A stretch of 52,950 nt of DNA from Chlorobiaceae bacterium. GTDB lineage: Bacteria > Bacteroidota > Chlorobiia > Chlorobiales > Chlorobiaceae. Shown one piece after another: positions 2-17,555 of this stretch. Position 1 is the first letter of the stretch. Each line of letters starts with the position of its first letter. Both the position numbers and the translations under genes were made by a program. The notes beneath the pieces are model-generated. The model searched no databases. It was not told the origin of the DNA and saw nothing but the letters and a program-made list of their open reading frames with translations. Location: the NCBI GenBank assembly GCA_013334435.1, contig JAAXXP010000006.1:1-52950 (forward strand), in the 5' to 3' direction.

Positions 2-127
2 GAAACAGGATTTGAGGAACTGCTGAATATTGATTGCACTCAGGCCGATCTTGAGGCAAGGAACATTCTGTTTATGAATGATGGGTGGGAGAGGTATTTC
101 GTGAAAATGCTGAGTCTGGTTGAGTGA
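2..127 (+). CDS. 3' end of an unidentified protein (partial)
   Basis: An open frame enters from the left edge and stops with TGA at 125-127, giving the last 41 residues of a protein whose start lies outside the window. The visible tail is acidic, contains no cysteine cluster or membrane segment, and ends in LSLVE. I do not recognise it. It shares the AT-rich composition and orientation of the RADAR genes 150 bases downstream, so it may belong to the same defence island, but nothing in the tail itself shows this. Reading frame continuity over only 41 codons is modest evidence. Confidence 0.5.
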   Translation, partial: ETGFEELLNIDCTQADLEARNILFMNDGWERYFVKMLSLVE

Positions 128-276: not shown

Positions 277-2799
277 ATGCCCATCATTCACCTATCCGAT
301 ACCGATACGAAGGCTTTTGACGAAAATCACCTTATTCAGCAGGTGGCAAAGGAAAAGTTTGAAAAGCTTGTACAAGGGTTCATAAAATCGCTTTCTGATA
401 AGGCAAATGATGAGAATTACAGGTCTCATTCATTTCGCACAGAGACTTCACGAGTTCATAATACAATTCTGATCAATGGTAAGCGTGGTATGGGAAAGAC
501 CTCGTTTATTCTGAGCATCCTTGACCAAAAAAATCAAAAAGCATCTTGGCTTGACGAAGTCTGCAATTTGCGTATCATTGATCCGACCATGATTGAATCA
601 AAAGAGCATATTTTTCTGAACATCATTGTCCGGATTAAAAAGAAGATCGAAGAGTATCGGAATAGTAATTGTTACAAAAGTGACAATTGTTTTCAAGAAT
701 GGAAAGATTCACTCAAAAAGCTGGCTGGTGGTCTCTGTGTTCTCGATGGTGTTGGTAGTGACCCTCTGAAAAATGACCTTTGGGATTCCCCTGAACTGAT
801 TCTTGAGAAGGGATTGGTCAATTCAAAACAAGGGTCGGAACTCGAGCAGAACTTCCACTTATTTCTTGATGCGAGCTTGGTATTGCTTGAAAAAAAAGTG
901 TTTTTACTTGTGCTTGATGATATTGACACCTCCCTTAAGGAAGGCAAGGCTATTCTTGAAATATTGCGCAAGTATCTTACCTCAAGAAAGTTGATCATCG
1001 TCATGCTGGGCGATATCGATCTTTATGCCACTATTGTGCGGCAACTTCAGTGGGAAAAGATGGATCCAAACGAGGCGCTTCTCAAGTATGAAAAAGATGG
1101 TTCAGAAATAAAAGGATTTTATCGTTCACAGATCGAGCATCTTGAGGAACAATACCTCACCAAACTCCTGAAGCCGGAAAACAGAATAAAGCTTCAAGCC
1201 ATTCAGGAGATGAAAAAGCATTTGACGGTGCAATGTGATAAGGAAGACGAGCAGTCGTTGACTGATGTTGTTGCTCGCCTTATAGAAACTGTTTTTCTTA
1301 CAAAGCCCCAGGCTCAATATGCGAAACTGTATGAGCAGACATTGCTTGCTCAGTCCACCCGATCGGTAGTCCAGGTACTGAGAGGCGCTCGTGATAGTGG
1401 AATAATCTGCCCGAAAGAGAGTGACAAGAATCAGCTTTCTCCTAACGCTTTTGTAGAGGTGCTGCGACAGCTCTTTTTTACAACTCTAAAAAAGAATCTC
1501 GAGCCATTTGATTTGCTGTATACCACAAAAGACCGGAGCCTGCTGAATCGGGTTGCAGTGTATATGCTGAAACAGGCAATCAGTCGCGACTCACATATGA
1601 AGCTGCTGCCGGAATACCGTGATGATGAAAAAAATATTACCATGCTTTTTCTCAACGCAGAAATCAATGCTCAACTGACACCTCAGCACTATCTTTCCTA
1701 TATGATTAAGGTTGGATATGCGCTTGAAAGATTTGGTGATGCTGAAAAGCAACAGGGGTTTTTTGATCATGTTGGCCTTGATAGTGATATATCAAATGCG
1801 AACATTGCTAGGCGTTTGCTATCAACTATCAAAATAGATTTTAATAGCCCAAAAAGTGTGTTTTTTGGTAATTTTTTTCTTTCAGGGAAAGGAGGTCTTG
1901 AAAAGAGTAAACTGGCTCTTTTTATGAGTTATGTGATATCTCCTAAGAAAAAAAGTTATATGTATATATCTTTCCTTAATCTTCTTGGAATATTAGCTGA
2001 TATTTCAATGTCGATAAAAGTTTCTGCCGATGGAGAACTCGATACAGAGTGTCAGAAAATATTGGAAAGTTGCAGGCTTATTCGAGGTATACATAGTTAC
2101 AATATTGATGCTATTGGGGGCTCGTTTAATGATGGTGTCGATAAGTATTATGATATGCCCGAATTTGATATAGATGCTGGGCTTATTAAGGATATATGTA
2201 TATGGGGTGGTAATGTTTTAAAGATTAATCAAATGCTTTCGATGGCGGATTTGGCTAATATATGGGTTCGTTTTTCTTATAGTTTAAATGAAATTGATAG
2301 TCGGTCCGAAAATAGCAGAAAAGATTATGCAGAGATGCTTGAGCTCTATGTTGCTGCTTTTCTTAATGCGGTTTATGTTTGTTGTGAAGAGAAAAGGGGA
2401 AAACAAATAGATATAACAAATCCATCAACCTCTCCGAATCACTTTTACAATAAATTGGTTAAGTATCATCCGGATGAGAAAGAATGGACTTTTTTCGATT
2501 ATCTATTAGTCTGTCCTGTTTTTAATAGGGGAAATGATTATAAGAGTCCAGGAAAATATTATGATTCTTTATTGCGTGAATTGAAAAAAATAATACGTAT
2601 GGATGAGAATAAGAAAAAAACAGGCCGGAGGGTGAAAATAGATTTTAGTGTATTGTTGGAAGATGTCCAGATAAATCTCATACGCAAAATCGCTGGATTT
2701 AAAAATATGTCAAACGATGAGATAAGAAAAGAGCTGCAAAAAGACTACAAAAACGTTAAGAGTAATATCGATTCACTGATCGAGAAGGCAAAAGGCTAG
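277..2799 (+). CDS. rdrA: RdrA-like P-loop ATPase of a RADAR antiphage system
   Basis: A protein of 840 residues. The Walker A motif GKRGMGKTS is at about residues 68-76, the Walker B motif LLVLDDID at about 210-217, and a sensor-like strand IVMLGDIDLY at about 241-250. This is the nucleotide-binding layout of the large STAND/AAA-like ATPases to which RdrA belongs. The remaining 550 or so residues are helical-looking with no motif I can name. In RADAR, RdrA forms a ring-shaped ATPase that works with the deaminase RdrB after phage infection. The call rests mainly on the gene pair: the stop codon is 2 bases before an RdrB-like deaminase start, on the same strand, and both lengths fit. The ATG start has only a weak AAGG ribosome-binding sequence at 261-265. 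Composition is AT-rich and more so in the last third (19 of 60 bases G+C in 2161-2220), consistent with transfer. A different ATPase/deaminase defence pair is the alternative. Confidence 0.85.
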   Translation: MPIIHLSDTDTKAFDENHLIQQVAKEKFEKLVQGFIKSLSDKANDENYRSHSFRTETSRVHNTILINGKRGMGKTSFILSILDQKNQKASWLDEVCNLRIIDPTMIESKEHIFLNIIVRIKKKIEEYRNSNCYKSDNCFQEWKDSLKKLAGGLCVLDGVGSDPLKNDLWDSPELILEKGLVNSKQGSELEQNFHLFLDASLVLLEKKVFLLVLDDIDTSLKEGKAILEILRKYLTSRKLIIVMLGDIDLYATIVRQLQWEKMDPNEALLKYEKDGSEIKGFYRSQIEHLEEQYLTKLLKPENRIKLQAIQEMKKHLTVQCDKEDEQSLTDVVARLIETVFLTKPQAQYAKLYEQTLLAQSTRSVVQVLRGARDSGIICPKESDKNQLSPNAFVEVLRQLFFTTLKKNLEPFDLLYTTKDRSLLNRVAVYMLKQAISRDSHMKLLPEYRDDEKNITMLFLNAEINAQLTPQHYLSYMIKVGYALERFGDAEKQQGFFDHVGLDSDISNANIARRLLSTIKIDFNSPKSVFFGNFFLSGKGGLEKSKLALFMSYVISPKKKSYMYISFLNLLGILADISMSIKVSADGELDTECQKILESCRLIRGIHSYNIDAIGGSFNDGVDKYYDMPEFDIDAGLIKDICIWGGNVLKINQMLSMADLANIWVRFSYSLNEIDSRSENSRKDYAEMLELYVAAFLNAVYVCCEEKRGKQIDITNPSTSPNHFYNKLVKYHPDEKEWTFFDYLLVCPVFNRGNDYKSPGKYYDSLLRELKKIIRMDENKKKTGRRVKIDFSVLLEDVQINLIRKIAGFKNMSNDEIRKELQKDYKNVKSNIDSLIEKAKG

Positions 2800-2801
2800 T
2801 T

Positions 2802-5105
2802 ATGAGGATCCTGATTGCCACAGCCTTTCTCGATTCTCATAAGATACTCGAGTATTATTATGATAATGGTGCTGCCGATTTTCAAAAGCTTCAGAGGCTT
2901 CATTTTGCAGAACTCTATGCGCGAGCTCCTTACAAGCCAGATCATTTCATAATCAGTGAACGGCAGGCTTTCTTTGAGGGTAAAAACAGTCTCGGAACAT
3001 CCCTTACAGGCGCTCTGGAGGCTCTGGCTGACATGTTGTACTTTCGAGGGCGTCAGCTCTATGTGAAAACTGATCGTTTCGATGAGTGGCAGGGGGCGAT
3101 TCTGAGCGCTTCTCCTTTATTGGTGATAGCATTCAGGATTTATCTTGCATCCAGTAAGGATCCGCTTCTCAATGCGGTTGAGCTTATCCGTATGCATCTG
3201 AATCGCACCTGCCTGCCATCTGTCTATGAGCCTCATCTCGAAAATGTTTGCCAGAAACCGGGGCTCACAGAATGCCACATGCATCTGAATGGTACGGTTG
3301 AGCCCGATATCGTCTGGCAGGATGCGTTGCAGCAACCTGTAAAGTTCTATCGGTATCTTCGCGATTCTTTCCGGAAAAGCGAAGTTGAAGAACAGTATCT
3401 GCAACTTGGACGGATTGAACCGCAGGATTTGTACCGGCTTTTGCAGATTGCCGTCAAACTGAGGGATTGCCTGATCGGAGTTCTTGTGGGTCGGCATGGT
3501 TTCGATGAGTGTAGCTCCCGTGAAAAGCTTATGGAAAATCCTTTGCGTTATGCTTCCACAGTACATCCGATGAATATTATAGCTCCGGAGTTGAAATTGA
3601 ACCCGATTCAGTATGAGGCGCTGTTTCTCCTTCGTGCATTTTCGTATCTGGACAAGGATCATGATGTCCGGTTCGCAGCTCGATTACACTACTATCTTCT
3701 GATTAGCTCTTTTTTTCAGAAGCTGCTTGTGCAGCAGAAACGACAGGTCGGATTCGATCAGTTTCAGAAGATTACACTCAATCAACTCAGAGAACATACC
3801 GAAAAGCAGTACTCCGCCCGTTTTCAACAGCTTCAGGGTATGCATGGCAACCATCTCGCTATCCTCGAAGGACGTTTTGCACCAAAAGACTCACGGCAAA
3901 AGCTGGAGTGGCTTATGATGGCCATAAAAAAAGGCTATAAAACAGAGGGGGAGAAGCCTTTTGAGCTGAAACTGGTCCCCCATTTTCTCAAAGAGAAGGA
4001 TGTACGCAAGCCTAAAGAGATTCTGACGTTCAGAGACCTTGGGCTCAGATTGAAAAATATCCGTCGATCAGAAGTTTTACTCGATGCTTTGCGTCGGGGG
4101 GCAAGTGATGCCGCCCGGTTTGCACAACAGTATATCGTGGGGTTTGACGCTGCTGCCAATGAATTGCATGCTTCACCAGAGGTGTTTGCACCAGTGTTCC
4201 GCAAACTGGCATTCATGGGATATGCTAACTTCACCTACCATGCGGGTGAAGATTTTGTGCATCTGCTTTCCGGAATGCGAGCGGTATATGAAGCGGTTGA
4301 ATTTCTGGAGATGATGCCGGGTAATCGTATCGGTCATGCGACAGTACTTGGGATCGAGCCGAAACTGTGGTTCAAGAGAATCGGGAAATCCATACACATC
4401 AAAAAGGGTGAATGGCTAGACAATCTGATTTTTACGTATCAATTTTGCTCTGATGATGGTGGGTTGTCTCACATCTGCCGCAAGCTGGAACAGCCGATTT
4501 TCAAGTATTTCAGTGAAGTGTACCAGACCAGTGAATTTCTGCCGGTTCAAACACTGATCGAAGCATGGCTGAGTCGTAAATATGATCCCTTTATCGCGTT
4601 AAAGTGGCGAGAGCCAGGTGTTTTCGACAGCTTTGCACGGCAAGAACTCGAAAAATTTCGCTCAACCAGTCCAAAAGCGCAGGATATCTACAGGAAATAT
4701 CATTCAAGAGATACCATTCGGGAAAGCAATAAACTCATACAGATCGCTTCTGAAGAACTTGTTTTGCATGACGAACTTCGCTTGATACAGTGCCGGATGA
4801 TAGAGTTTCTGAATAAAAAACAGATTGCTATCGAGATGCCGCCATCGAGCAATGTCCGTATCAGTCACTACAAGAGCTATGATGAGCATCATATGCTCCG
4901 CTGGCTCGGATTGACCCATCCTGACGATCCTAAACCTGTTATTGTTCCGGGAAGTGATGACACGGGTATTTTTATGACCAACCTGAGAAACGAGTATGCC
5001 CACATTCAGCGAGTGCTCGAATCAAAAACCGACAAAGACAAAGCAGACAAGCTGATTGCCGATTTGGTCAGAAATAGCAATGTCTATTCTTTTAAAAGAT
5101 TATGA
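2802..5105 (+). CDS. rdrB: RdrB-like divergent adenosine deaminase of a RADAR system
   Basis: A protein of 767 residues, about twice the length of housekeeping adenosine deaminases and in the size class of RdrB. Deaminase motifs appear in the expected order: HMHLNGT with metal ligands H159 and H161, YHAGED with H480 and the catalytic E483, RIGHA with H512, and GSDD with D719 and D720. All are intact, so the enzyme looks active. The N-terminal 150 residues and the long insert between the first two motifs are specific to this large class. In characterised RADAR systems RdrB assembles into a large shell, and the complex deaminates adenosine in RNA or in the ATP pool during infection. Which substrate applies here cannot be read from the sequence. 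It is translated from the same operon as rdrA with a 2-base gap. Composition is close to 50% GC, intermediate between rdrA and the core genome. Confidence 0.88.
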   Translation: MRILIATAFLDSHKILEYYYDNGAADFQKLQRLHFAELYARAPYKPDHFIISERQAFFEGKNSLGTSLTGALEALADMLYFRGRQLYVKTDRFDEWQGAILSASPLLVIAFRIYLASSKDPLLNAVELIRMHLNRTCLPSVYEPHLENVCQKPGLTECHMHLNGTVEPDIVWQDALQQPVKFYRYLRDSFRKSEVEEQYLQLGRIEPQDLYRLLQIAVKLRDCLIGVLVGRHGFDECSSREKLMENPLRYASTVHPMNIIAPELKLNPIQYEALFLLRAFSYLDKDHDVRFAARLHYYLLISSFFQKLLVQQKRQVGFDQFQKITLNQLREHTEKQYSARFQQLQGMHGNHLAILEGRFAPKDSRQKLEWLMMAIKKGYKTEGEKPFELKLVPHFLKEKDVRKPKEILTFRDLGLRLKNIRRSEVLLDALRRGASDAARFAQQYIVGFDAAANELHASPEVFAPVFRKLAFMGYANFTYHAGEDFVHLLSGMRAVYEAVEFLEMMPGNRIGHATVLGIEPKLWFKRIGKSIHIKKGEWLDNLIFTYQFCSDDGGLSHICRKLEQPIFKYFSEVYQTSEFLPVQTLIEAWLSRKYDPFIALKWREPGVFDSFARQELEKFRSTSPKAQDIYRKYHSRDTIRESNKLIQIASEELVLHDELRLIQCRMIEFLNKKQIAIEMPPSSNVRISHYKSYDEHHMLRWLGLTHPDDPKPVIVPGSDDTGIFMTNLRNEYAHIQRVLESKTDKDKADKLIADLVRNSNVYSFKRL

Positions 5106-5231
5106 TATAATGATTAATAATTTGTTCTCTTGGAAGTCCATAGGGACGCTGTTGATTATCTCGAACAGGTTTGGATATTTCATATATTGCTGAAAAGCGG
5201 TTCCGCCAATAAAACAAAAACCCAACACCCC

Positions 5232-6197
5232 GTGCCGCGAGGAGCGAGACTTGACGCGCCGGGAACCCTGCATCATGTGATCATCAGGGGGATTGAAGAA
5301 GGGAGCATCGTCCGGGACGATACTGACCGGAAAGCCGTTCTGGACCGGATGGGATTACTTGCCAAAGGCTCGGGCACGAGCATCTGCGCCTTTGCGCTTA
5401 TGCCGAACCACGCGAATATCCTCCTGAAAAGCGGCCCGGACGGACTTTCCTCCTTCATGCGCCGTCTGCTTTCGGGGTACGCGCCGTACTTCAACCGGCG
5501 TCACCAGCGCGTCGGGCACCTTTTCCGGAACCGGTACCAGTCCATCGTCTGCGAGGAGGAGGCGTACTTCGATAAACTCGTGGCGTTCATCCACCTCAAA
5601 CCTTTGCGTGCCGGACTGGTCGAATCGCTCGATCAACTGGCGCTTTATCCGTGGAGCGGCCACGCGGTGCTCCTGGGCAGGGTGAAGTACGACTGGATGG
5701 ATCGCGACTATGTGCTGCGCTTTTTCGGCGGCAGTGCGGGAGCGGCAAGAACGGCGTATCCGGCATTTCTTGAAAAGGAGCTGGCCACAGACCGTGAACA
5801 GGAGCTGTCGGGAGGCGGCCTCGTGCGCTCTCAGGGCGGCTGGTCGAGGGTTCAGTCCATGCGGAAACGGGGCCGGAAAGTCCTCGGCGACGAGCGGATT
5901 CTCGGCGGTGAGGATTTCGTCAAAGGGATATTGAAGGAGGCGGCTGACGGGAAAGAGGTTCCGTTGTCGGAACACGAACGGCTGCAGTTGTTTGACAATG
6001 CTGCCGAACAGGCATGCGAAGCGGCAGGAGTAACCGTAACGTTCCTGCGCTCGGGGAGCAGGAGCGGCCAGCTGCCCTCTCTGCGGAAACAGCTTGCCAA
6101 AAAGGGCGCGTTCGAAATCGGCCTGCCTCTTGCCGAAATTGCACGGCGGCTCGGGGTGACGCCGAGCGCCGTCAGCTATATGCTGAAGCGGCAATGA
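5232..6197 (+). CDS. REP-associated tyrosine transposase-like protein (Y1/HUH), probably inactive
   Basis: About 321 residues from the GTG at 5232, chosen because family members usually begin MPRGARLDAPGTLHHV and the frame matches from VPRGARLD. An in-frame TTG at 5130 would add 34 unrelated residues. The core resembles Y1_Tnp/RAYT proteins: LHHVIIRG, ALMPNH, GHLFRNRYQSI with the candidate catalytic tyrosine, FIHLKPLRAGLV and YPWSGH. A C-terminal helix-turn-helix (LAEIARRLGVTPSAVSYML) follows. RAYTs are single-copy domesticated transposases that act on REP hairpins. Here the HUH pair reads H60-A-N62 instead of H-x-H (codon AAT at 5415-5417), and the usual YIHLNP is FIHLKP, so metal binding and activity are doubtful. 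No terminal repeats or target duplication are visible. It sits just after the AT-rich island, with core-like GC. Confidence 0.75.
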   Translation: MPRGARLDAPGTLHHVIIRGIEEGSIVRDDTDRKAVLDRMGLLAKGSGTSICAFALMPNHANILLKSGPDGLSSFMRRLLSGYAPYFNRRHQRVGHLFRNRYQSIVCEEEAYFDKLVAFIHLKPLRAGLVESLDQLALYPWSGHAVLLGRVKYDWMDRDYVLRFFGGSAGAARTAYPAFLEKELATDREQELSGGGLVRSQGGWSRVQSMRKRGRKVLGDERILGGEDFVKGILKEAADGKEVPLSEHERLQLFDNAAEQACEAAGVTVTFLRSGSRSGQLPSLRKQLAKKGAFEIGLPLAEIARRLGVTPSAVSYMLKRQ

Positions 6198-6302
6198 GGC
6201 CTGTTGTCCGAATTCCATGATTGCGATGGTTCTGTTTTGCACTGGTTCCCATGGATGAATTTCGTATCCGGATTTTCAACAACAGATCATTTCCCGCTGC
6301 GT

Positions 6303-6794
6303 ATGACACATCCATTCTGTACATCGGTTATCAGGCACCTCTCAACAAGCGCTGAACGCCTTGCGGTCTGCATCGATACGGTTGACGAGGATCGTCTGTG
6401 GGTTGATTTTGCCCCGAACCTCGCAAGCCCCGGAAACCTCGTGCTGCATCTTGCGGGCAATCTCGGCCAGTACGTGCTCCGGACGCTCGGAGGGAGCCCC
6501 AGCCTGCGTGACCGGGCCGGTGAGTTTTCAGACAAGCCATCAAAAGACCGGGACGCGCTCAAGGCCATGCTGCTGGAGCGCGTCGACCAGTGTATTGCGG
6601 TTATCGGCGGGCTTGGAGAGGAAGATCTGGAGCGGATATATGCCGTTCAGGGCAGCGAGCGGACGGGCTTCGACATTCTCCTGCAGGTCTCCGAACATTT
6701 CAGTTACCATACCGGCCAGTTCGCCTGGTTCTGCAAATACCTGTTCCACGGGGATATCGATTTTTACAGGGGCAGGGATCTCAACGTCCGGTAA
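6303..6794 (+). CDS. DinB-like metal-binding four-helix protein
   Basis: About 163 residues from the ATG at 6303, the length usual for the DinB/YfiT superfamily. Upstream in-frame starts (6204 TTG, 6255 ATG) would add a segment with no family resemblance. The three expected histidines are visible: LVLHLAGNLGQYV near residue 48, and EHFSYHTGQFAW near residues 134-139 in the typical HxxxHxGQ arrangement. Members are four-helix bundles that bind a divalent metal; some are thiol-dependent transferases and most have no known substrate. Its neighbours are a transposase-like gene and a GNAT acetyltransferase, which say little about its role. A short GGCGGA/TCCGCC hairpin follows the stop codon without a T-run. 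Confidence 0.7.
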   Translation: MTHPFCTSVIRHLSTSAERLAVCIDTVDEDRLWVDFAPNLASPGNLVLHLAGNLGQYVLRTLGGSPSLRDRAGEFSDKPSKDRDALKAMLLERVDQCIAVIGGLGEEDLERIYAVQGSERTGFDILLQVSEHFSYHTGQFAWFCKYLFHGDIDFYRGRDLNVR

Positions 6795-6878
6795 AGGGGG
6801 CGGATTATCCGCCTGAAATCCCGACAGACCGGCCTATATTATCTCTATTGCAGTGCATAACAGAACACAGGGATAACC

Positions 6879-7391
6879 ATGAATTCAGGAATAGCAATCA
6901 GGGACGAGCAACCCGGCGATGCAGCAGCGATAACCGATCTCACCATCGAGGCATTCAAAACGCTGGAAGTCAGCAACCACACGGAACAGTTCGTGATCGA
7001 GGCGCTGCGCGCCGCCGGAGCGCTCACGCTCTCCCTTGTTGCGGAGCTCGACGGTCGTGTGGTGGGCCATATCGCATTTTCGCCAGTGACCATGTCGGAC
7101 GGCACCACCGGCTGGTACGGCCTCGGGCCGGTATCGGTGTTTCCGGAGCTGCAGCGGCAGGGAATCGGCAAGGCCCTCATACAGGAGGGGCTTCAGCGCA
7201 TGAAAGCGCTGGGCGCCCGGGGCTGCTGCCTTGTGGGGCATCCGGAGTACTACCGGCAGTTCGGGTTCAGCAATTACGGGGGGCTTGCGATAGAGGGAGT
7301 GCCTTCGGAGGTGTTTTTCTCGCTTGCTTTCGATGGAGACACCCCTAACGGGAGCGCCATGTTTCATGATGCATTCATGGCGCGCGCCTGA
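6879..7391 (+). CDS. GNAT-family N-acetyltransferase, YhbS-like
   Basis: A protein of 170 residues with the GNAT fold: the N-terminal IRDEQPGDAAAITDLTIEAF segment, the VVGHIAFSPV strand, and the acetyl-CoA-binding motif A in LQRQGIGKALIQEGL at about 91-105. HPEYYRQFGF at about 127-136 is characteristic of the YhbS-like subgroup. The family acetylates small molecules, peptides or tRNA-linked substrates; the target here is unknown. An AGGGA ribosome-binding sequence precedes the ATG. The gene stands alone, with a possible TATATT -10 element about 45 bases upstream of the start. Confidence 0.8.
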   Translation: MNSGIAIRDEQPGDAAAITDLTIEAFKTLEVSNHTEQFVIEALRAAGALTLSLVAELDGRVVGHIAFSPVTMSDGTTGWYGLGPVSVFPELQRQGIGKALIQEGLQRMKALGARGCCLVGHPEYYRQFGFSNYGGLAIEGVPSEVFFSLAFDGDTPNGSAMFHDAFMARA

Positions 7392-7841
7392 GATGGTCAA
7401 TGCTATACTCGGGAGTTGATGAAAACAGGCGAACTCTCAACCTGCTTCGAGACAAACCGTGCGCTTCCGCCGAACCGGTCCTCCTGTTTTTCCGGCGTTT
7501 TTTTTGCGTGACCGGCTGGCGTAGAAAAGGCTTGTGAATTCGTTTCCTGTTTGCTAACATGTGAAAGACAAGTGTTTTGCTGGGTACAACCCCCAAACTC
7601 GGAAAAACATGCCCCCCATCCCGATGCAATGCTTCAGCATTGTCACGCAGACCTTTTTTCAGGGTTTCCTTTCCTCAAAATTCCGGATTTCAATCCGGAA
7701 TCCTCGCTTGTCTTTTGTTACCGCATTATACCCGGTTTGAACAGGAGAGGGGATGGCGTAAAACAGCCCCGTCGCCATGTTTGCGGCGAGGCCGGATCAA
7801 TCTCAGGTTTGTTTTTTCCAATCAAACAACAGGAGCAGACA
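7392..7841. other. 450-base intergenic region without a supportable gene
   Basis: Between the acetyltransferase and the small protein at 7842 I see no reading frame with recognisable protein character. Open frames here, on both strands, lack a ribosome-binding site and family-like sequence. The stretch contains T-rich runs near 7484-7508 and a short TCGCC/GGCGA hairpin near 7774-7792 in what would be the leader of the downstream gene. An AGGAG ribosome-binding site at 7831-7835 belongs to that gene. No CRISPR, tRNA or insertion-sequence end is evident. Confidence 0.5.
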
Positions 7842-8249
7842 ATGAGCAACTATCCTATCACCGACTTTCAGGGCGATTGCGGGGAGAGCTCGCAGCAAGG
7901 GCGGCCGAACAGTGTTGGGTCAGTCAAGGGCCTGCAATGCAACGAAGCTGCCAGTATTCAGGGAAACACGGATCTGAGTACCTGCATGCGCGCCAACAAT
8001 GGGGCTATGGTGTACGGCATAACCCTGACGGGTTCTCCCGGTATCTATGACTTCGTTGTCAATGTCGATGCACAGGGTCCTCACGGCTTCGGAAGCGGCA
8101 GCATGTATCTGGCATTTACCGATGAGTCGGGGGATACCTACTACCTGTCGATATACAGCAGCACCCGGTCGGTGCATACCGTTCGCTACAACAGCGAAAA
8201 GCCCGCCATCAAAAGGATATGGTGGAGCGACTACAGCTTCACCGTATAG
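7842..8249 (+). CDS. Small beta-rich protein of unknown function
   Basis: 135 residues from an ATG preceded by a good AGGAG ribosome-binding site at 7831-7835. There is no signal peptide, lipobox or membrane segment. The first 65 residues are rich in Ser, Asn, Gly and Gln and contain two cysteines (CGESS and LQCNEA) and a third at STCMR. The second half alternates hydrophobic and polar residues (IYDFVVNVDAQGPHG, YLAFTDESGDTYYLSIY, VHTVRYNS), ending in a Trp-Trp pair (IKRIWWSDYSF), which suggests a beta-sandwich. I do not recognise the family; a lectin-like or pore-forming-like sandwich is only a structural guess. A strong inverted repeat follows 10 bases after the stop codon. Confidence 0.6.
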   Translation: MSNYPITDFQGDCGESSQQGRPNSVGSVKGLQCNEAASIQGNTDLSTCMRANNGAMVYGITLTGSPGIYDFVVNVDAQGPHGFGSGSMYLAFTDESGDTYYLSIYSSTRSVHTVRYNSEKPAIKRIWWSDYSFTV

Positions 8250-8259
8250 TCCGCCTGCA

Positions 8260-8306
8260 GGAATGCCGGCCATGCAGCTTTATCGCGGAGCCATGGCGGG
8301 CATTCC
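8260..8306. repeat. Near-perfect 15-bp inverted repeat after the small unknown gene
   Basis: GGAATGCCGGCCATG at 8260-8274 pairs with CATGGCGGGCATTCC at 8292-8306 with a single G-G mismatch and a 17-base loop. It begins 10 bases after a stop codon, so it could stop transcription or protect the mRNA end, but there is no T-run after it. The rest of the 8250-8524 spacer shows no gene. Confidence 0.45.
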
Positions 8307-8524
8307 ATTAAAACGCATTTGCGCACGGAACGCGGTTCGGAGCGGCAAAGGAAACGGTGAATCCCGTGCATTAACAGGCAAGCGGCAACAACGGGTGCTG
8401 CAATCCGGTTAAATGTTGTTTTCCGGGCGTTATCTTTTCGTGCGATAGTGTATTTTGCGGAAAAACGATACGGCGTGTAAGCTCACGCGGTGCGGAGAGA
8501 GAGGCTTAACCACAGGGGAACGAT

Positions 8525-9409
8525 ATGATCGGCTTTTTCAGACGGGTTGTTGCGGTGTACGATTCTCTGGAGCATATCTGGGAGCACAAGCGAACCGAAC
8601 GCGCTGCCGCCAATCTCCTGATTGCGGCCTTTCTCGGTTCGCTTGCGCTGATCGAGCTGGCCCGTCAGGGGTGGCTGCCCGAAACCGTTGCCGTGCTGCT
8701 GCCCAAAAGCCATTTCTATGCCATCAACGTTGCATTTTCCATGCTGCTCGGGATCGAGGTTTTCGGACTGGTGTTCAGCCTGGCGAACTCGGTTTCCGTT
8801 TCGGTGGGCAAGCAGTTCGAAATCCTCTCGCTCATCCTGCTGCGCCACTCTTTCAAGGAGTTTATCTACTTCAACGAGCCGCTTGTCTGGGAGCAGGCGT
8901 CAAAGCCGGTGCTGCACATTCTCTCCAACGCCGGCGGGGGGCTCCTGATATTCTTTCTGCTCGGGATCTATTACCGGCTGCAGCGCCACCGCGTCATTAC
9001 GCAGACCGCCGTAGCCACCGCAGAGTTCATCGCCTCGAAGAAGATCGTGTCGCTGTTTCTGCTTCTGGTCGTCAGCTGCATAGGTGTGCTCCAGGGTTAT
9101 TATTTCCTGCAGGGCCAAACGGTTTACGATTTCTTCTCGATTTTCTACACCGTGCTTGTGTTCAGCGATGTACTGCTGGTGCTGATCTCCCTGCGCTACA
9201 GCTCAAGTTATCCCATCCTGTTCCGCAACTCCGGCTTTGCCGTCGCAACCGTGGTCATCAGGCTTGCCCTGACCGCTCCGCTGTATCTCAACGTCCTGCT
9301 TGGCGCAGGGGCCATGGTGTTCGCCATCGGCATTACCATAGCGTACAACCGGTTTGAAAAAACAGCACGGCAATCCGCCGGTACAGCGAAGAGTTCGTTG
9401 TCACACTGA
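8525..9409 (+). CDS. Conserved-looking polytopic membrane protein, function unknown
   Basis: 294 residues with about seven hydrophobic segments: near 30-45, 60-85, 135-150, 175-195, 203-222, 235-252 and 254-275. An N-terminal amphipathic stretch includes SLEHIWEHKRTERAAANLL. Charged patches such as LRHSFKEFIYFNEP lie between the helices, giving an inner-membrane topology. No transport, channel or enzymatic signature is evident to me. The ATG follows CAGGGGAACG, which contains a weak ribosome-binding sequence. It is convergent with the rlpA-like gene. It may be lineage-specific; I do not assign a role. Confidence 0.7.
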   Translation: MIGFFRRVVAVYDSLEHIWEHKRTERAAANLLIAAFLGSLALIELARQGWLPETVAVLLPKSHFYAINVAFSMLLGIEVFGLVFSLANSVSVSVGKQFEILSLILLRHSFKEFIYFNEPLVWEQASKPVLHILSNAGGGLLIFFLLGIYYRLQRHRVITQTAVATAEFIASKKIVSLFLLLVVSCIGVLQGYYFLQGQTVYDFFSIFYTVLVFSDVLLVLISLRYSSSYPILFRNSGFAVATVVIRLALTAPLYLNVLLGAGAMVFAIGITIAYNRFEKTARQSAGTAKSSLSH

Positions 9410-9510: not shown

Positions 9511-10020
9511 TCATTTCGAGAGCACTTCGAGCTTGACCTTTGCCGTGCCTTTGCCGAAGAATCCGAGCCGTTTGGCGGCTTCAGCGGAGAGGTCTATCAC
9601 CCTGTCGTCGACGAACGGACCCCGGTCGTTCACGCGCACGATGATCGACGAGTTGTTTTCGAGATTGGTGACGCGCACAATTGCCGGAAGCGGGAGGTAT
9701 TTATGGGCGGCGCTGGGTTTGTCGGGGCGGAAGATTTCGCCGTAGGCCGTCGGCTGGTTGTTGTGCTGATCGAGGGTTTCCTGGCCGTACCAGGATGCGA
9801 TGCCGATTTCCTGGTAGCCGCTGGTTTCCCTGTAATCCATCGGGACATAGCGTTTGCCGTCGATCACATAGGGCTTGTTCTTGAGTTTTCCCAGACGGTA
9901 AGCCTCTTCCGGTGAAAGCAGCCGTCCGCTTCCCGATGAAAAAGGACCCCGGCTTGTCGAGCAGGAGCTGAGCCCTACGGCAGCCGCCATGAGTGCCGTA
10001 AAAAGGATTTTGCGCATCAT
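9511..10020 (-). CDS. rlpA: RlpA-like septal ring lipoprotein (DPBB domain)
   Basis: 169 residues on the minus strand. A signal peptide ends in a lipobox (GLSSC, cysteine about 20), so the product is a lipoprotein. The double-psi beta-barrel follows: IGIASWYGQETLDQHNNQPTA (GxASWYG motif at about 74-80), then SIIVRVNDRGPFVDDRVIDLS and AAKRLGFFGKG. RlpA proteins are lytic transglycosylases or glycan-binding factors that act on denuded peptidoglycan at division sites. The SPOR domain found in many homologues is absent, so this is the short form. An AGAGGAG ribosome-binding site lies 8 bases before the first ATG. It is divergently transcribed from the downstream hydrolase, with a 141-base AT-rich intergenic region between them. 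Confidence 0.88.
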   Translation of the reverse strand: MMRKILFTALMAAAVGLSSCSTSRGPFSSGSGRLLSPEEAYRLGKLKNKPYVIDGKRYVPMDYRETSGYQEIGIASWYGQETLDQHNNQPTAYGEIFRPDKPSAAHKYLPLPAIVRVTNLENNSSIIVRVNDRGPFVDDRVIDLSAEAAKRLGFFGKGTAKVKLEVLSK

Positions 10021-10161
10021 TGATTCGTCTCCTCTTGCATGGGTTATTCTTAAATAATAGCTATTTCACAGGAAAATTCCCGCTCCGGGCGTATATTCTT
10101 CGTTCAATTAAAAAAGCACTTTGCTTGCACAGACCCTTTCTTCCGGCTTTTTTCCACTGTT

Positions 10162-10950
10162 ATGGCTGAACAACAGCATGCGAAAGCTCCTGTCGGCGTC
10201 CTGATCATCCACGGGTTCAGCGCAACGCCCGAGAGTGTCGCCATACTTGAAAAACCATTGCGGGCTCTCGGTCTGCCGGTAAGCCTGCCGCTTCTTTCCG
10301 GTCACGGAGCCTCTTCCCCCGAAGCGCTCAGGGGGGTGACCTTTCATGACTGGATTGCTGATGCCTGTCGGGCATTTCAGGCGCTTGCCGAAAAGGCCGA
10401 TAAAATCATCATCGTGGGTCACAGCATGGGCGGCCTGATTGCTCTCCGGCTTGCCGCTCAGTACGCCGGAACGGTTGATTCGCTTGTTCTTGCTGCTCCC
10501 GCCCTCAGGCTTGCCTCCCTGCTCGCCCCCGGAAGGCCTTTCCACTTTGCTGCGGCTCCGCTGGCCAGGGTGATAAAACGGTGGGATATCAAACCGGTTT
10601 TCACCGGACCCGACTATCTTGGCAGTGTCGCCCAGTATGCATGGGTGCCGACCGATGCCATACTCTCCCTGTTCGAACTGATCGGCGCGACACTGCCGCT
10701 GCTCGGGAGCGTTACCGTTCCGGTGATACTCCTGCAGAACCGGCGAGAGACAACGGTACGGTCGGAAAGCGTTGCAATGCTGTTCAATCGTATAGGCACC
10801 AGCCACGCAGAGCGATCGGTCATCTGGCTGGAGCGCTCTGAGCATCAGATATTCTGTGACTGCGAGCGCGAAGAGGCCCTCAGAGCCATTCTTGCCTTTG
10901 TTTCCGGCAGGCTGAAGCACGATTCGCCGCATGCCGGACGTATCAGTTAA
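10162..10950 (+). CDS. Alpha/beta hydrolase, carboxylesterase/monoacylglycerol lipase-like
   Basis: 262 residues, cytoplasmic, with the alpha/beta-hydrolase order: oxyanion loop LIIHGFSATPES at about 14-25, nucleophile elbow GHSMGG with Ser88, and a C-terminal histidine in RSEHQIF. It resembles small esterases of the Est30 type that act on short- to medium-chain esters. The position where those enzymes carry the acidic triad residue (after the LLQ strand) reads NRRETTV, with glutamate but no aspartate, so either Glu serves or the triad is unusual. The gene is 36 bases upstream of the PagL-like gene on the same strand and may be co-transcribed with it. The ATG start gives a normal family length. 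Confidence 0.8.
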   Translation: MAEQQHAKAPVGVLIIHGFSATPESVAILEKPLRALGLPVSLPLLSGHGASSPEALRGVTFHDWIADACRAFQALAEKADKIIIVGHSMGGLIALRLAAQYAGTVDSLVLAAPALRLASLLAPGRPFHFAAAPLARVIKRWDIKPVFTGPDYLGSVAQYAWVPTDAILSLFELIGATLPLLGSVTVPVILLQNRRETTVRSESVAMLFNRIGTSHAERSVIWLERSEHQIFCDCEREEALRAILAFVSGRLKHDSPHAGRIS

Positions 10951-10986
10951 CCGTCAACTACCCTAAACCCGAAAAAACGTTGTACC

Positions 10987-11604
10987 ATGAACTGCCGTAT
11001 CGCTTCTTTTTTCCCTCTTCTCCTGGTTTTTTTTCTTTCATCCGCAGCGGCCGTTCCGGCGTCCGCTTCAGCTGAAATAGTGCAGCATGAAGGGAAAAAC
11101 GGCCTCTGCCTCAATGAAATCGGTATTGGAACCGGTTATGCATGGGGCTCTCTGAAAGGTGAATCCGGGGACATATCCGTCTACCCGGCATTCGTGAGAC
11201 TTGGTTTCAGCGCCAACAGCCTGGTGGGCATAAAGAGCTCCCGGAATACCCTGCAGCTGACGATCGAGCCCTTTCTCAATGCCGTTTCCGGGCCTGAGGA
11301 TGGTGTCGAGGCAGGATGCGCCCTGGGTGTGCGCTACCTTCACGAAATCGCAAGCCCTCTGGCGCTCTATCTTGAGGCCAGCGTCGCGCCGATGTACTAC
11401 AGCATCGATACCGTGGAGCAGGGCGCGGCCGGATTCAATTTTCTCGACCAGTTCGGGGCCGGACTGCAGTACCGGGTTGCGCCGGCAATGGCGGTGTTCG
11501 GCGGGTACCGGTTCAGACATCTTTCCCATGCGGATCTTGCGGACCGTTCCAATGACGGGATCAACACCAATGCACTTGTCCTGGGTTTTTCGTGGCTTTA
11601 TTGA
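10987..11604 (+). CDS. PagL-like lipid A deacylase / acyloxyacyl hydrolase family protein
   Basis: 205 residues with an N-terminal signal peptide (hydrophobic to about residue 28) followed by alternating beta strands typical of an eight-stranded outer-membrane barrel, ending in an aromatic residue (FSWLY). Near the C-terminus GYRFRHLSHADL places H178 and S180 in the H-x-S spacing of the PagL active site, followed by NDGIN as in the family. The third catalytic residue (Glu in Pseudomonas PagL) is not obvious; Asn or Thr occupies that stretch. PagL removes a 3-O acyl chain from lipid A in the outer membrane. It may instead be a non-catalytic homologue. A 9-bp terminator hairpin follows at 11656. 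Confidence 0.7.
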   Translation: MNCRIASFFPLLLVFFLSSAAAVPASASAEIVQHEGKNGLCLNEIGIGTGYAWGSLKGESGDISVYPAFVRLGFSANSLVGIKSSRNTLQLTIEPFLNAVSGPEDGVEAGCALGVRYLHEIASPLALYLEASVAPMYYSIDTVEQGAAGFNFLDQFGAGLQYRVAPAMAVFGGYRFRHLSHADLADRSNDGINTNALVLGFSWLY

Positions 11605-11617
11605 CACTTGGCGTGTC

Positions 11618-11638
11618 GATGTAACCGATTCGTAACAG
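11618..11638 (+). promoter_or_regulatory. Pho-box-like tandem repeat upstream of alkaline phosphatase
   Basis: GTAAC at 11621-11625 recurs at 11632-11636, an 11-base period as used by PhoB/OmpR-class regulators that bind one face of the helix. The element matches another at 18461-18481 at 16 of 21 positions, sharing TGTAACC-N2-TT-N-GTAACA. A TATGTT sequence at 11649-11654, 12 bases downstream, could be the -10. It lies 73 bases before the start of an alkaline phosphatase gene, the classic phosphate-starvation target. The regulator is not in the window. Confidence 0.5.
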
Positions 11639-11655
11639 CGGGATTTCTTATGTTG

Positions 11656-11690
11656 AAAGGCGGCGTCAATGCCGCCTTTCTGCATCTTTT
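11656..11690 (+). terminator. Intrinsic terminator of the PagL-like gene
   Basis: AAAGGCGGC (11656-11664) and GCCGCCTTT (11671-11679) form a perfect 9-bp stem with a 6-base loop, followed by TTTT at 11687-11690. It lies 52 bases after the PagL-like stop codon. It also lies downstream of the putative Pho-box promoter, whose start site would fall inside the hairpin. Confidence 0.75.
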
Positions 11691-11710
11691 CAACCAATCA
11701 GGACACAACC

Positions 11711-13180
11711 ATGATTGCGCCGCGTCCCGGAACATCACCATCCGCGATTTTCCAGAAACTTCTGGTTCTGCTCATGCTGGTTCTGATTGGTTCGGGATCA
11801 GGATGTACAGGCAGCGCCGGGCTGGTGCATGTACCCGACAAGGGAGTTTATTCCGCCCGCCCGAAATACATTTTCCTCTTTATCGGCGACGGTATGGGCC
11901 TGGCGCAGGTAAAGCTCTCCGACGGGGTACTCGATCCGGACAAAGGCCTTGCCATGGGAGGCTTGCCGGTAACCGGCATTACCGCGACCCATGCCGAAAA
12001 TCGCTACATCACCGATTCCGGCGCTGCGGGAACGGCTCTTTCGACCGGATTCAAGACCTCCATCGGCACCATTTCGATGAGGAGCAACCACAGGGATACC
12101 CTGCGTACCGTCGCAGAGATGGCGAAACAGAAAGGCATGCGGGTGGGCATCCTGTCCAGCGTCGGTATCGACAATGCTACCCCGGCCTGTTTTTACGCCC
12201 ATAATGCCGGAAGAGGCAATTACCACGATATCGCCGTGCAGATGGCAACAAGCGGTTTCGATTATTTCGGGGGAGGCTATGCCGAGGGCGATTTTTTGCA
12301 TAACCGGCTCAGGGGCGGGGCGGCCAAACCGGACATTCCTTCGGTCATGAAAGCCGCCGGCTATCGGGTGACGACAGGCCGGGATGAGCTGCTCTCCGTG
12401 CTGCCGGGGACACCCTGCTGGGCATATACCGGTTTTGACGGCAAGGCGGCGATGAGCTATGCCATGGATCGACGGAAAGAGGATCTTTCTCTGGCCGAGT
12501 TTACCCGCCAGGGCATCAGGCTGCTCGACAACCCTGCCGGATTTTTCATGATGGTCGAGGGAGGAAAGATCGACTGGGCATGCCATGCCAACGACGCCGC
12601 CGCCGCTGCGCATGATGTTGCGGCTTTCGATGAGGCCATTGCCGAGGCGGTAGCTTTTTACCGGGTTCACCCGTCAGAGACCCTCATTGTGGTGACCGCC
12701 GATCATGAGTGCGGCGGTCTTTCGCTCGGCAACGCTTCCCAGGGTTACGAATCCCGGTTGCAGCTCCTGCGCCGTCAGAAGGTTTCGCGGCAGCGATTTT
12801 CCGAGATGGTTGCTTCATGGACGAAAACCCGAAGTGTCTCCTTTGCCATGGCGCTCGACAGCGTGAAGGTGTATTACGGTCTGGGCGACGCGGCTTCCGA
12901 TTCTGCACTGGCGATTTCTGTGCAGGAGCGGAAAATGCTCAGGGGCGCCTATCCTGCAACGCCTGAGGACTCCGGACCCGGAGCGGAGCGTTTTGCTTCG
13001 GCCGTTACCGGCATGCTGAATGCAAGGGCAGGCATCGGCTGGACAAGCAACGCCCATACGGCGGTTCCGGTTCCGGTTTTTGCGGCTGGGGCCGGTGCTG
13101 AAGCGTTCGGCGGCAGCTATGACAATACCGGCATTGCCGAAAAAATCATGCGTCTGGCTCGTTTCGGCGGAAGACCGTGA
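11711..13180 (+). CDS. Alkaline phosphatase, lipoprotein
   Basis: 489 residues from the ATG at 11711, preceded by CAGGA. An in-frame upstream start at 11669 lies inside the region following the terminator hairpin and is less likely. The N-terminus has a hydrophobic signal ending in a lipobox (GSGSGC, Cys32), so the enzyme is probably anchored in the periplasm or outer membrane. Alkaline phosphatase motifs are FIGDGMG (metal-binding Asp60), ITDSGAAGTAL with the phosphorylated Ser103, VEGGKIDWACHAND, TADHECGG and SNAHTAVPVPVFAAG near the C-terminus. These supply the zinc and magnesium ligands of the PhoA/alkaline phosphatase fold. It releases phosphate from organic esters outside the cytoplasm. 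The upstream Pho-box-like repeat suggests induction by phosphate limitation. Confidence 0.9.
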   Translation: MIAPRPGTSPSAIFQKLLVLLMLVLIGSGSGCTGSAGLVHVPDKGVYSARPKYIFLFIGDGMGLAQVKLSDGVLDPDKGLAMGGLPVTGITATHAENRYITDSGAAGTALSTGFKTSIGTISMRSNHRDTLRTVAEMAKQKGMRVGILSSVGIDNATPACFYAHNAGRGNYHDIAVQMATSGFDYFGGGYAEGDFLHNRLRGGAAKPDIPSVMKAAGYRVTTGRDELLSVLPGTPCWAYTGFDGKAAMSYAMDRRKEDLSLAEFTRQGIRLLDNPAGFFMMVEGGKIDWACHANDAAAAAHDVAAFDEAIAEAVAFYRVHPSETLIVVTADHECGGLSLGNASQGYESRLQLLRRQKVSRQRFSEMVASWTKTRSVSFAMALDSVKVYYGLGDAASDSALAISVQERKMLRGAYPATPEDSGPGAERFASAVTGMLNARAGIGWTSNAHTAVPVPVFAAGAGAEAFGGSYDNTGIAEKIMRLARFGGRP

Positions 13181-13352
13181 CGGGATATCCATGGCTGTTT
13201 TTGCGCCGGACGTTCGTTATATTTGCGGTTGTTGTTTCTTTTATCCGGCCCGGTCTTGATCATGAAATCATATGAGGGAGCTGTGACTGTCGGGAGTGTT
13301 TCGCCGCAGCGGCATTGCGCTGCAGGTTGTGGTGCTTCGGGAGATATCGCGT

Positions 13353-14009
13353 ATGCATGAAAAAGGCATGCGCGTTGTCGACCTGACGAGGTCGATCGGC
13401 CCCGGTATGTCATGCTATCCGGGGACTCCTCCGCCCGGCTCGGTTTCGCTCGCAACCATCGATGCCGACGGCTTCAACGAACAGCTGCTCACCTTTTCCT
13501 CCCACACCGGAACCCATGTCGATCTTCCCCTGCATATGTCCGACGGTGCGCCCTCTCTTGATGCTTTCGGTGCGGAGCGGTTCATTGGCCGCGGCGTGGC
13601 GCTCGATGTGGCATGCGCTTCCGGAGGCATCATTCCTCTTGCCCTTATTCAGCCCAGCCGCCCCCTGATCGAGGGTGCCGATTTCGTGCTGCTGCATTCC
13701 GGATGGGGGCGGTACTGGGGCACACAACGATACCTCTCCGGCTATCCCGTACTGAGCTCCGAGGCGGCTGCCTGGCTGGCCGGGTTTCAGCTGAAAGGGA
13801 TCGGGGTTGACATGGTTTCGGTCGATCCTTCCGATTCGGAGGAGTATCCCCTGCACAACCTGTTTCTTGCAAACGGGACGCTGATCGTCGAGAATCTGGT
13901 TTATCCGGACCGGAGGCTGCTGGGGACGGGTTTTCAGTTTTTCTGTCTGCCTCTGAAAATCGAAGGGGCTGAAGCCTCTCCAGTAAGGGCGGTAGCCTTA
14001 CTGGATTGA
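13353..14009 (+). CDS. Cyclase-family metal hydrolase (kynurenine formamidase-like)
   Basis: 218 residues from the ATG at 13353, with GGGAG 9 bases upstream. Earlier in-frame starts lack this support. The signature HTGTHVDLPLH (HxGTHxDxPxH) supplies the metal ligands of the PF04199 cyclase fold, and VDLTRSIGPGMSCYPGTPPP matches the family N-terminus. GVDMVSVDPSDSEEYPLHNLFL contains the second conserved region. Members hydrolyse amides or lactones, such as N-formylkynurenine, but no tryptophan-degradation genes are nearby, so the substrate is unknown. The last codons overlap a 9-bp hairpin. Confidence 0.8.
   Translation: MHEKGMRVVDLTRSIGPGMSCYPGTPPPGSVSLATIDADGFNEQLLTFSSHTGTHVDLPLHMSDGAPSLDAFGAERFIGRGVALDVACASGGIIPLALIQPSRPLIEGADFVLLHSGWGRYWGTQRYLSGYPVLSSEAAAWLAGFQLKGIGVDMVSVDPSDSEEYPLHNLFLANGTLIVENLVYPDRRLLGTGFQFFCLPLKIEGAEASPVRAVALLD
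13980..14004 (+). terminator. Hairpin overlapping the end of the cyclase gene
   Basis: CCAGTAAGG (13980-13988) and CCTTACTGG (13996-14004) form a perfect 9-bp stem with a 7-base loop. The hairpin lies within the last codons, ending 5 bases before the end of the stop codon. Only a loose T-rich stretch follows (ATTTTAGTTT), so termination is likely but not certain. It separates the cyclase from the sdhCAB operon. Confidence 0.45.
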
Positions 14010-14108
14010 TGAATGGATTTTAGTTTGCATTTCTAAAAAGATGGTATTACCTTACGCGGCAATGGATGTATTTTTGCGTTCTTTTCCAGTGCACTGAAAA
14101 ATCATAGT

Positions 14109-14771
14109 ATGAACAAGTTATTGTTGTTTTCGTCAATCACCAGAAAGGTGATGATGGCGCTTGCAGGGCTTTTTCTGGTAACTTTTCTTTGTGTTCATCT
14201 CGGCATCAATCTGATGCTGCTCAAAAATGACGGGGGCCGGGCTTTTTCCGAAGCGGCTGCCTTCATGGGTACGAATCCTCTCATAAGGGTTTCCGAGATT
14301 GTACTTTTCGGGGGATTTCTTCTCCATATCGCCTACGGAGTGCTGGTCTCCGTGCAGAACCGGGTTTCCCGGCCGGTCACGTATGCGATACCAAACAAGA
14401 CGGAAACATCTTTTCTGTCGAAGTACATGCTGCACAGCGGCATCATCGTCTTTGTCTTTCTCGCGCTGCACTTTGCCGATTACTACCTTGTCAAGATCGG
14501 GCTTGTCGCTCCTCCTGCCGGGATTTCCTCTCACGATTTCTACGCCATCACCGTTCACCTGTTCTCGAGTTTCTGGTACTCCCTGGTTTACATCGTCGGC
14601 TTCGCGTTTCTCGGCTTTCATCTCAACCACGCCATCCAGTCGGCTTTTCAGACCATGGGCTGGAACCACAGCAAGTACATGGACACCATCAAACTCTTCA
14701 GCACGGCATATTCCGTCCTGATCGCTGTCGGTTTCAGCGTGATCCCGATCTATTTCCTCTTTATAAAATAG
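14109..14771 (+). CDS. sdhC: Succinate dehydrogenase/fumarate reductase cytochrome b subunit
   Basis: 220 residues with five predicted membrane helices, the single large anchor typical of Bacteroidetes/Chlorobi-type complex II (one cytochrome b subunit, no separate SdhD). Histidines positioned in or at the ends of helices (VHLGINL near 31, LLHIAYG near 78, ALHFADYY near 122, FHLNHAIQSAF near 176-179) are candidate haem b ligands. The subunit anchors SdhA and SdhB to the membrane and passes electrons to or from the quinone pool. It is the first gene of an sdhCAB operon, 49 bases before sdhA. In green sulfur bacteria complex II works as fumarate reductase in the reductive TCA cycle; here this role is inferred from the genus assignment. 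Confidence 0.92.
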   Translation: MNKLLLFSSITRKVMMALAGLFLVTFLCVHLGINLMLLKNDGGRAFSEAAAFMGTNPLIRVSEIVLFGGFLLHIAYGVLVSVQNRVSRPVTYAIPNKTETSFLSKYMLHSGIIVFVFLALHFADYYLVKIGLVAPPAGISSHDFYAITVHLFSSFWYSLVYIVGFAFLGFHLNHAIQSAFQTMGWNHSKYMDTIKLFSTAYSVLIAVGFSVIPIYFLFIK

Positions 14772-14820
14772 GTTAACAATTGCTAATCCCTGCGATTTTC
14801 ACTGAAAAAAACCACGTTCA

Positions 14821-16761
<1,941 letters not shown>

Positions 16762-16772
16762 TAGTCAGGACT

Positions 16773-17546
16773 ATGAATTTCACGCTGAAGATCTGGCGAC
16801 AGAAAAATGCGTCAGCAAGAGGGGAGATCCTCACCTATTCGATCAGGGATATTTCGCCTGATATCTCTTTTTTCGAGATGCTTGATATTCTCAACCAGCA
16901 GCTGATCTCGAAAGGTGAAGATCCGGTTGCTTTCGACCACGACTGCCGGGAGGGCATCTGCGGCACCTGCAGTCTGTACATCAACGGACGCCCGCACGGG
17001 CCGGTCAGCGGCGTTACGACCTGCCAGCTCCATATGCGGGCGTTCGCCGACGGAGATGTCATCTATGTAGAGCCCTGGCGTGCGAAGGCTTTTCCTGTCA
17101 TAAGGGATCTTGTGGTTGACAGAAGCGCTCTTGACCGGATCATCCAGGCCGGCGGGTATGTTTCTGTGAATTCGGGAGGCGTTCCTGACGCGAATACCAT
17201 TCCGGTTCCGAAACCGGAATCCGATGCGGCGTTCGATGCGGCAACCTGTATCGGTTGCGGCGCCTGCGTGGCCTCATGTCCCAACGCTGCTGCCATGCTG
17301 TTTGTCGGAGCGAAGGTCTCGCATCTTGCCCTGCTCCCGCAGGGAAGGGTGGAAGCGGTTCAGCGGGTGCAGAAGATGGTTGCACGGATGGACGAGCTGG
17401 GCTTCGGCAACTGCAGCAATACCTATGCCTGCGAAGCGGAGTGCCCGAAGCAGATTTCCGTTTCCAGCATCGCCCGCATGAACCGTGAGTTCCTTTCGGC
17501 AAAACTGTTTTCCGAAAAGGAAAAGGTGATCAGCGATTCGATCTGA
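16773..17546 (+). CDS. sdhB: Succinate dehydrogenase/fumarate reductase iron-sulfur subunit
   Basis: 257 residues with the three cluster motifs in order. The [2Fe-2S] ligands are C58, C63 and C66 in CREGICGTC plus C84. The second motif is [13 protein letters not shown], for the [4Fe-4S] cluster, and the third is [12 protein letters not shown], supplying the remaining ligands. The subunit wires electrons between the flavin in SdhA and the haem/quinone site in SdhC. It ends the sdhCAB operon and is followed 10 bases later by an intrinsic terminator. The C-terminal half resembles Bacteroidetes/Chlorobi homologues in its Asn/Pro-rich linker. Confidence 0.95.
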
Positions 17547-17555
17547 ATGCCTTTC

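What the first reader, a model, noticed from the sequence alone, without database searches (positions are those of the whole stretch)
277..5105. RADAR antiphage system in a probable green sulfur bacterium
The sequence shows a P-loop ATPase of 840 residues followed 2 bases later by a 767-residue adenosine deaminase with H159xH161, H480AGE483, H512 and D719D720 intact. Established knowledge: the RdrA ATPase plus RdrB deaminase pair is the RADAR defence system. Inference: this locus is a complete, active RADAR system in an anaerobic phototroph lineage, carried by an AT-rich island next to a GC-rich core.
Basis: partly seen in the sequence, partly recalled or inferred. Interest (0 to 1): 0.85.

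Follow-up and report, generated by a model that had tools for sequence, protein, structure and literature searches.

The report
RADAR antiphage system in Chlorobium
A green sulfur bacterium carries an intact, horizontally acquired copy of a known two-gene phage defence (RADAR: an ATPase ring plus an ATP-deaminating enzyme), a new host record for a known system rather than a new system.

Summary
rdrA (277-2799, 840 aa) and rdrB (2802-5105, 767 aa) are intact, 2 bases apart, with every named catalytic residue. Both match RADAR profiles far beyond chance. The RdrB model superposes over its full length on E. coli RdrB (8fnv/8hr7, TM about 0.84), and the RdrA model, including its C-terminal half, on E. 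coli RdrA (8hr8/8fnt, TM about 0.69). The scores lie below NCBI's equivalog cut-offs, but the copy nearly identical to the experimentally proven E. coli RADAR scores even lower, so that does not exclude membership. The host is a green sulfur bacterium (FMO protein present). Within its genus only 2 of 65 genomes carry the pair. Trees of both proteins group it not with Bacteroidota but with Campylobacterota copies and two small MAG contigs, so it was acquired horizontally. The right edge of the foreign segment lies just after rdrB; the left edge is cut off by the contig end. 74 of the 79 best relatives have rdrA next to rdrB. Residues at the two mapped E. coli assembly interfaces are not conserved. 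Activity, assembly and trigger are untested. Verdict: a genuine RADAR system, new member of a known kind, modest interest.

The parts
277..2799 (+). rdrA: 840-aa ATPase, N-terminal AAA+ domain (about residues 1-373) and helical C-terminal half
   Evidence: NCBIfam NF041743 E 4.8e-42; PADLOC RdrA E 5.1e-28; PDB 8fnt 3.3e-29; AlphaFold2 model vs 8hr8 TM 0.68-0.70
493..501 (+). Walker A G73-K74-T75
   Evidence: aligned with E. coli RdrA G81-K82-T83; G and K invariant in 22 RdrAs, third position T or S
916..921 (+). Walker B D214-D215
   Evidence: aligned with E. coli RdrA D221-D222, invariant
1012..1014 (+). sensor 1 D246
   Evidence: aligned with E. coli RdrA D253, invariant
1360..1362 (+). sensor 2 R362
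   Evidence: invariant in 16 aligned RdrAs; aligned with E. coli R377
2802..5105 (+). rdrB: 767-aa adenosine-deaminase-fold enzyme
   Evidence: NCBIfam NF041744 E 1.6e-44; PADLOC RdrB E 8.5e-27; PDB 8fnv/8fnw 5.9e-76; AlphaFold2 model (pLDDT 93) vs 8hr7/8fnv TM 0.83-0.85
3276..3284 (+). zinc ligands H159-x-H161
   Evidence: aligned with E. coli RdrB H152, H154
4239..4250 (+). H480-A-G-E483: zinc ligand and catalytic Glu
   Evidence: aligned with E. coli RdrB H498, E501
4335..4337 (+). zinc ligand H512
   Evidence: aligned with E. coli RdrB H530
4956..4961 (+). D719-D720
   Evidence: both invariant among 17 RdrBs; D719 invariant and D720 at least 90% among 42
5106..5175 (.). right edge of the foreign segment: homology to the RADAR-free relative G001 begins at 5176
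   Evidence: blastn against L127

Best explanation
This is a complete two-gene RADAR antiphage operon acquired by a Chlorobium lineage through horizontal transfer. By homology with E. coli RADAR, RdrA forms an AAA+ ring that docks on an RdrB shell. After phage infection the complex deaminates adenine nucleotides (ATP/dATP to ITP/dITP, with a debated contribution of RNA editing), so the infected cell stops making phage. Shown here: gene pair, catalytic residues, fold and family membership, patchy distribution, horizontal history. Inferred: assembly, nucleotide substrate, triggering by phage, and that it works in this host.
For: Profiles. Solved-structure sequence matches. Full-length fold matches of both models to RADAR structures. 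Catalytic residues invariant across 16-42 relatives. 74 of 79 related rdrB loci have an rdrA-like gene directly upstream. A plasmid copy nearly identical to the structurally solved E. coli RdrB (1675 bits to 8fnw) lies in the same large RdrB branch and scores lower on the NCBIfam models than the window proteins. rdrA and rdrB trees agree on the placement. Mechanism of E. coli RADAR: PMC9994260.
Against: NCBIfam scores (144 and 153 bits) are far below the equivalog cut-offs (600, 800). The E. coli interface residues (RdrA K150, E151, R162; RdrB E595-E597) are not conserved here (F139, Q140, G151; S577, E578, F579; only the second Glu is kept), though they also vary among the other relatives. 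No expression or phage data.
Confidence: 0.93

Rival explanations
1. The deaminase is a housekeeping adenosine/AMP deaminase that happens to lie beside an unrelated ORC/Cdc6-like ATPase.
For: Pfam A_deaminase (2.6e-13) and a weak ORC/Cdc6 family hit (TIGR02928, 2e-05).
Against: The RdrB model wins by about 30 orders of magnitude. Fold match to housekeeping deaminases has TM by query about 0.3 against 0.84 for RdrB. RdrA structures beat ORC/Cdc6 by over 20 orders. Pair conserved in 74 of 79 relatives.
Confidence: 0.01
2. It is a degenerate or silenced RADAR remnant that no longer defends.
For: Contig edge hides the left flank; interface residues known from E. coli are not kept. Some relatives have broken copies (L041 rdrA split, L085 rdrB without rdrA).
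Against: Both frames open at full length; every catalytic residue kept; the sister copy in G015 differs at 24% (RdrB) and 38% (RdrA) of residues yet is open and intact, which indicates purifying selection.
Confidence: 0.06
3. It is a RADAR system but works by A-to-I editing of RNA rather than by deaminating mononucleotides.
For: RADAR was first described as an RNA editor; structures of RdrA in an 'RNA-loading state' are deposited (introduction of PMC9994260).
Against: PMC9994260 found little editing and strong ATP/dATP to ITP/dITP conversion, with an active site like mononucleotide deaminases; the model here has the same deaminase fold.
Confidence: 0.12

Closest known systems
E. coli P0304799.3 RADAR (RdrA 8fnt, RdrB 8fnv, complex 8fnw; also 8hr7)
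   Same: Gene order and tight spacing, catalytic residues, full-length folds; same large RdrB branch (29% identity RdrB, 23% RdrA)
   Different: Shorter proteins here (840/767 vs about 945/799 aa); interface residues not conserved
Citrobacter-type RADAR annotated by NCBI as rdrA/rdrB (e.g. E. coli AR_0128)
   Same: Same two-gene plan and active sites
   Different: Only about 16-20% identical; separate deep branch in both trees
RADAR loci of Campylobacterota (Sulfurimonas, Sulfuricurvum, Helicobacteraceae MAGs)
   Same: Nearest larger group in both trees; about 48-51% RdrB and 34-48% RdrA identity; no shared accessory gene
   Different: Different phylum and genomic context
Cad1 (CARF-adenosine deaminase of type III CRISPR)
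   Same: Deaminase fold converting ATP to ITP
   Different: Only the deaminase part matches (PADLOC 4.9e-10; fold TM about 0.3); partner here is RdrA, not a CRISPR signal

Membership tests
RADAR | Tandem rdrA-rdrB gene pair | tested here: met
   277-2799 and 2802-5105, same strand, 2 bases apart; 74 of 79 relatives the same
RADAR | RdrA profile match and intact AAA+ motifs | tested here: met
   NF041743 4.8e-42; Walker A, Walker B, sensor 1 and sensor 2 residues conserved
RADAR | RdrA helical C-terminal domain | tested here: met
   full-length fold match to 8hr8/8fnt, TM 0.66-0.70, pLDDT 82; no profile hit in this half
RADAR | RdrB profile match with His tetrad and catalytic Glu | tested here: met
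   NF041744 1.6e-44; H159, H161, H480, H512, E483
RADAR | RdrB-specific insertions around the deaminase core | tested here: met
   whole-chain match to 8fnv/8hr7 at TM 0.83-0.85 over about 830 columns, against about 0.3 for plain deaminases; the three insertions were not delimited one by one
RADAR (NCBIfam equivalog) | Score above the curated equivalog cut-off | tested here: not met
   144/600 and 153/800 bits; control: the near-identical copy of the proven E. coli RADAR scores 128 and 115, so this cut-off describes one branch, not the system
RADAR | RdrA crown and RdrB shell interface residues known from E. coli | tested here: inconclusive
   not conserved here, nor in most other relatives
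RADAR | Heptamer/dodecamer assembly, ATP to ITP conversion, phage protection | not testable with these tools
   needs biochemistry and phage assays
Cad1 / CARF-ADA | CARF domain fused to the deaminase | tested here: not met
   best PADLOC stretch covers only part of the deaminase (435-532; profile 408-496) and no CARF family appears in Pfam

The most novel reading that the evidence does not exclude
A subclade of RADAR shared by Chlorobium, Campylobacterota and a Methyloprofundus MAG, with compact proteins and re-wired RdrA-RdrB contacts, exchanged between phyla of sulfidic habitats and possibly assembling or triggering differently from the E. coli complex.
Probability: 0.3. Interest if true: 0.4.

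Novelty: new member of a known kind. Interest (0 to 1): 0.25.

Why it matters
It documents a RADAR system in green sulfur bacteria, and a clear case of one being shared between Chlorobium and Campylobacterota (habitat sharing inferred from the genera). It also shows a practical gap: the NCBI equivalog models name only one branch of RADAR, so the branch holding the structurally solved E. coli system, with several hundred species-level relatives of its RdrB, can go unnamed. The compact, divergent pair could help separate what the assembly truly needs from what is particular to E. coli.

Tried and rejected
A single-sequence query against genome and viral contigs found nothing; an alignment query worked. 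Phage records: no match. Third accessory gene (as SLATT in Aureibacter, L007): none shared in the closest clade, and no PADLOC hit among six downstream ORFs tested. Upstream 127-base gene tail: no convincing match. Left edge of the foreign segment: G001's left flank is not found in the window's genome. Repeats around the operon: only chance-like short pairs. Promoter/terminator scan: near shuffle background. Housekeeping deaminase and Cad1 considered and rejected on fold and profiles.

Full report
Observation. The two ORFs are present exactly as described: 277-2799 (840 aa) and 2802-5105 (767 aa), both on the + strand and 2 bases apart. The window starts at base 1 of its contig. The genome has the FMO antenna protein, so the host is a green sulfur bacterium; by kinship the surrounding genomes form one large genus, consistent with Chlorobium (genus name inferred).

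Identity. RdrA and RdrB are the best families in PADLOC and NCBIfam. Against solved structures RdrB matches E. coli RdrB at 5.9e-76 and RdrA matches E. coli RdrA at 3.3e-29, the latter essentially only in the AAA+ half. That is the pattern reported for RADAR proteins in general, where identity between systems is 22-28% and confined to the ATPase domain and the C-terminal deaminase part (PMC9994260). Predicted structures, made from window and related-locus sequences only, remove the doubt about the divergent parts. The RdrB model (pLDDT 93) matches 8hr7/8fnv over the whole chain, TM 0.83-0.85. The RdrA model (pLDDT 82) matches 8hr8/8fnt at TM 0.66-0.70, including its helical C-terminal half.

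The one failed test and its control. Both proteins score well below NCBI's equivalog cut-offs (144 of 600 and 153 of 800 bits). A Pantoea plasmid RdrB is almost identical to the solved E. coli RdrB (1675 bits to 8fnw over all 799 residues). That pair scores 128 and 115 bits, less than the window pair, while the E. coli AR_0128 pair passes with 690 and 901 bits. The cut-offs describe one branch of RADAR, so failing them does not exclude membership.

Catalytic anatomy. RdrB: zinc ligands H159, H161, H480, H512 and catalytic E483 align with E. coli H152, H154, H498, H530, E501 in all 22 aligned proteins. D719 is invariant, and D720 at least 90% conserved, in 42 relatives. RdrA: G73-K74 (Walker A), D214-D215 (Walker B) and D246 (sensor 1) are invariant in 22 proteins, with T75 replaced by Ser in two; R362 (sensor 2) is invariant in 16 and in an overlapping-purpose set of 41. 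In contrast, residues whose mutation weakens or abolishes E. coli defence at the RdrA-RdrB interface (K150, E151, R162) and at the RdrB three-fold interface (E595-E597) are not kept (F139, Q140, G151; S577, E578, F579), nor are they kept in most other relatives. Assembly by different contacts is therefore likely, but untested.

Relatives and history. An alignment query of one-genome-per-species data found 431 stretches encoding relatives of RdrB. Of the best 79 loci, 74 have an rdrA-like gene directly upstream; of the five without, four have rdrB near the start of the contig and one (L085) lacks it although the upstream DNA is there. Within the genus, 2 of 65 genomes carry the pair; in an even sample of the phylum 9 of 394 carry an RdrB relative. 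The RdrB tree places the two Chlorobium copies with a 'Neomarinimicrobiota' MAG contig, a Methyloprofundus MAG contig and seven Campylobacterota loci (SH-aLRT 99), away from the Bacteroidota copies. The RdrA tree agrees on the nearest kin. This indicates horizontal transfer, plausibly among organisms that share sulfidic habitats (inference from the genus names). The two nearest MAG contigs are only 5 kb long and hold little but the operon, so their assignment to a host is unsure.

Genomic setting. GC is 38% for rdrA and 46% for rdrB, against 57% downstream. Relative G001 lacks RADAR and aligns with the window from base 5176 onward (94% identity), so the right edge of the foreign segment lies within 71 bases of the end of rdrB, at the start of a REP-associated tyrosine transposase frame (5130-6197). 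G001's left flank was not found in the window's genome, and the contig begins 276 bases before rdrA, so the left edge and any upstream partner are unknown. In G015 the operon has different neighbours, among them a fragment of a related transposase gene.

Mechanism. By homology with E. coli RADAR: RdrA ring docked on an RdrB shell, deamination of ATP and dATP to ITP and dITP after infection, growth of phage limited (PMC9994260). Shown here: parts, folds, active sites, conservation, distribution. Inferred: assembly, substrate, trigger, activity in this host.

Verdict. Ordinary in kind, genuine, and a new host group as far as the accessible text shows: the phylum list of the 270-genome survey is in a figure and table that could not be read, and its main text does not mention Chlorobi. 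New member of a known kind; interest 0.25.

Noticed in passing
window 5130-6197: REP-associated tyrosine transposase with a C-terminal helix-turn-helix; 42 of 65 genus genomes match the 5106-8500 segment, most hits being to this gene and often several per genome, so it looks like an amplified family in Chlorobium. A fragment also lies beside the RADAR operon of G015.
   Followed up: partly
window 5176-9368: This stretch is 87-94% identical to G001, whereas 10000-20000 is only 80-83% identical: possible recent exchange or a slower region.
   Followed up: no
window 6204-6794: DUF1572/DinB-like gene present here but absent from the matching place in G001, where only about 60 bases separate the flanks.
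   Followed up: partly
window 2-127: C-terminal 41 residues of an unknown gene cut by the contig start; no convincing relative found.
   Followed up: partly
window 15531-15610 (-): ARAGORN calls a tRNA-Arg inside the open frame of a succinate dehydrogenase/fumarate reductase flavoprotein; probably a false call.
   Followed up: no
L041 4348-6849; L025 8683-11099; L085 9881-11860: Apparently broken RADAR copies: rdrA split into two frames (L041, L025) and a shortened rdrB without rdrA (L085).
   Followed up: no
L110-L113: IMG/VR contigs carry RADAR pairs of the E. coli/Serratia branch, suggesting carriage by prophages or satellites.
   Followed up: no
L005, L028, L029: RADAR copies (nearly) identical to the structurally solved E. 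coli system are still annotated as hypothetical protein, adenosine deaminase or archaeal ATPase.
   Followed up: yes
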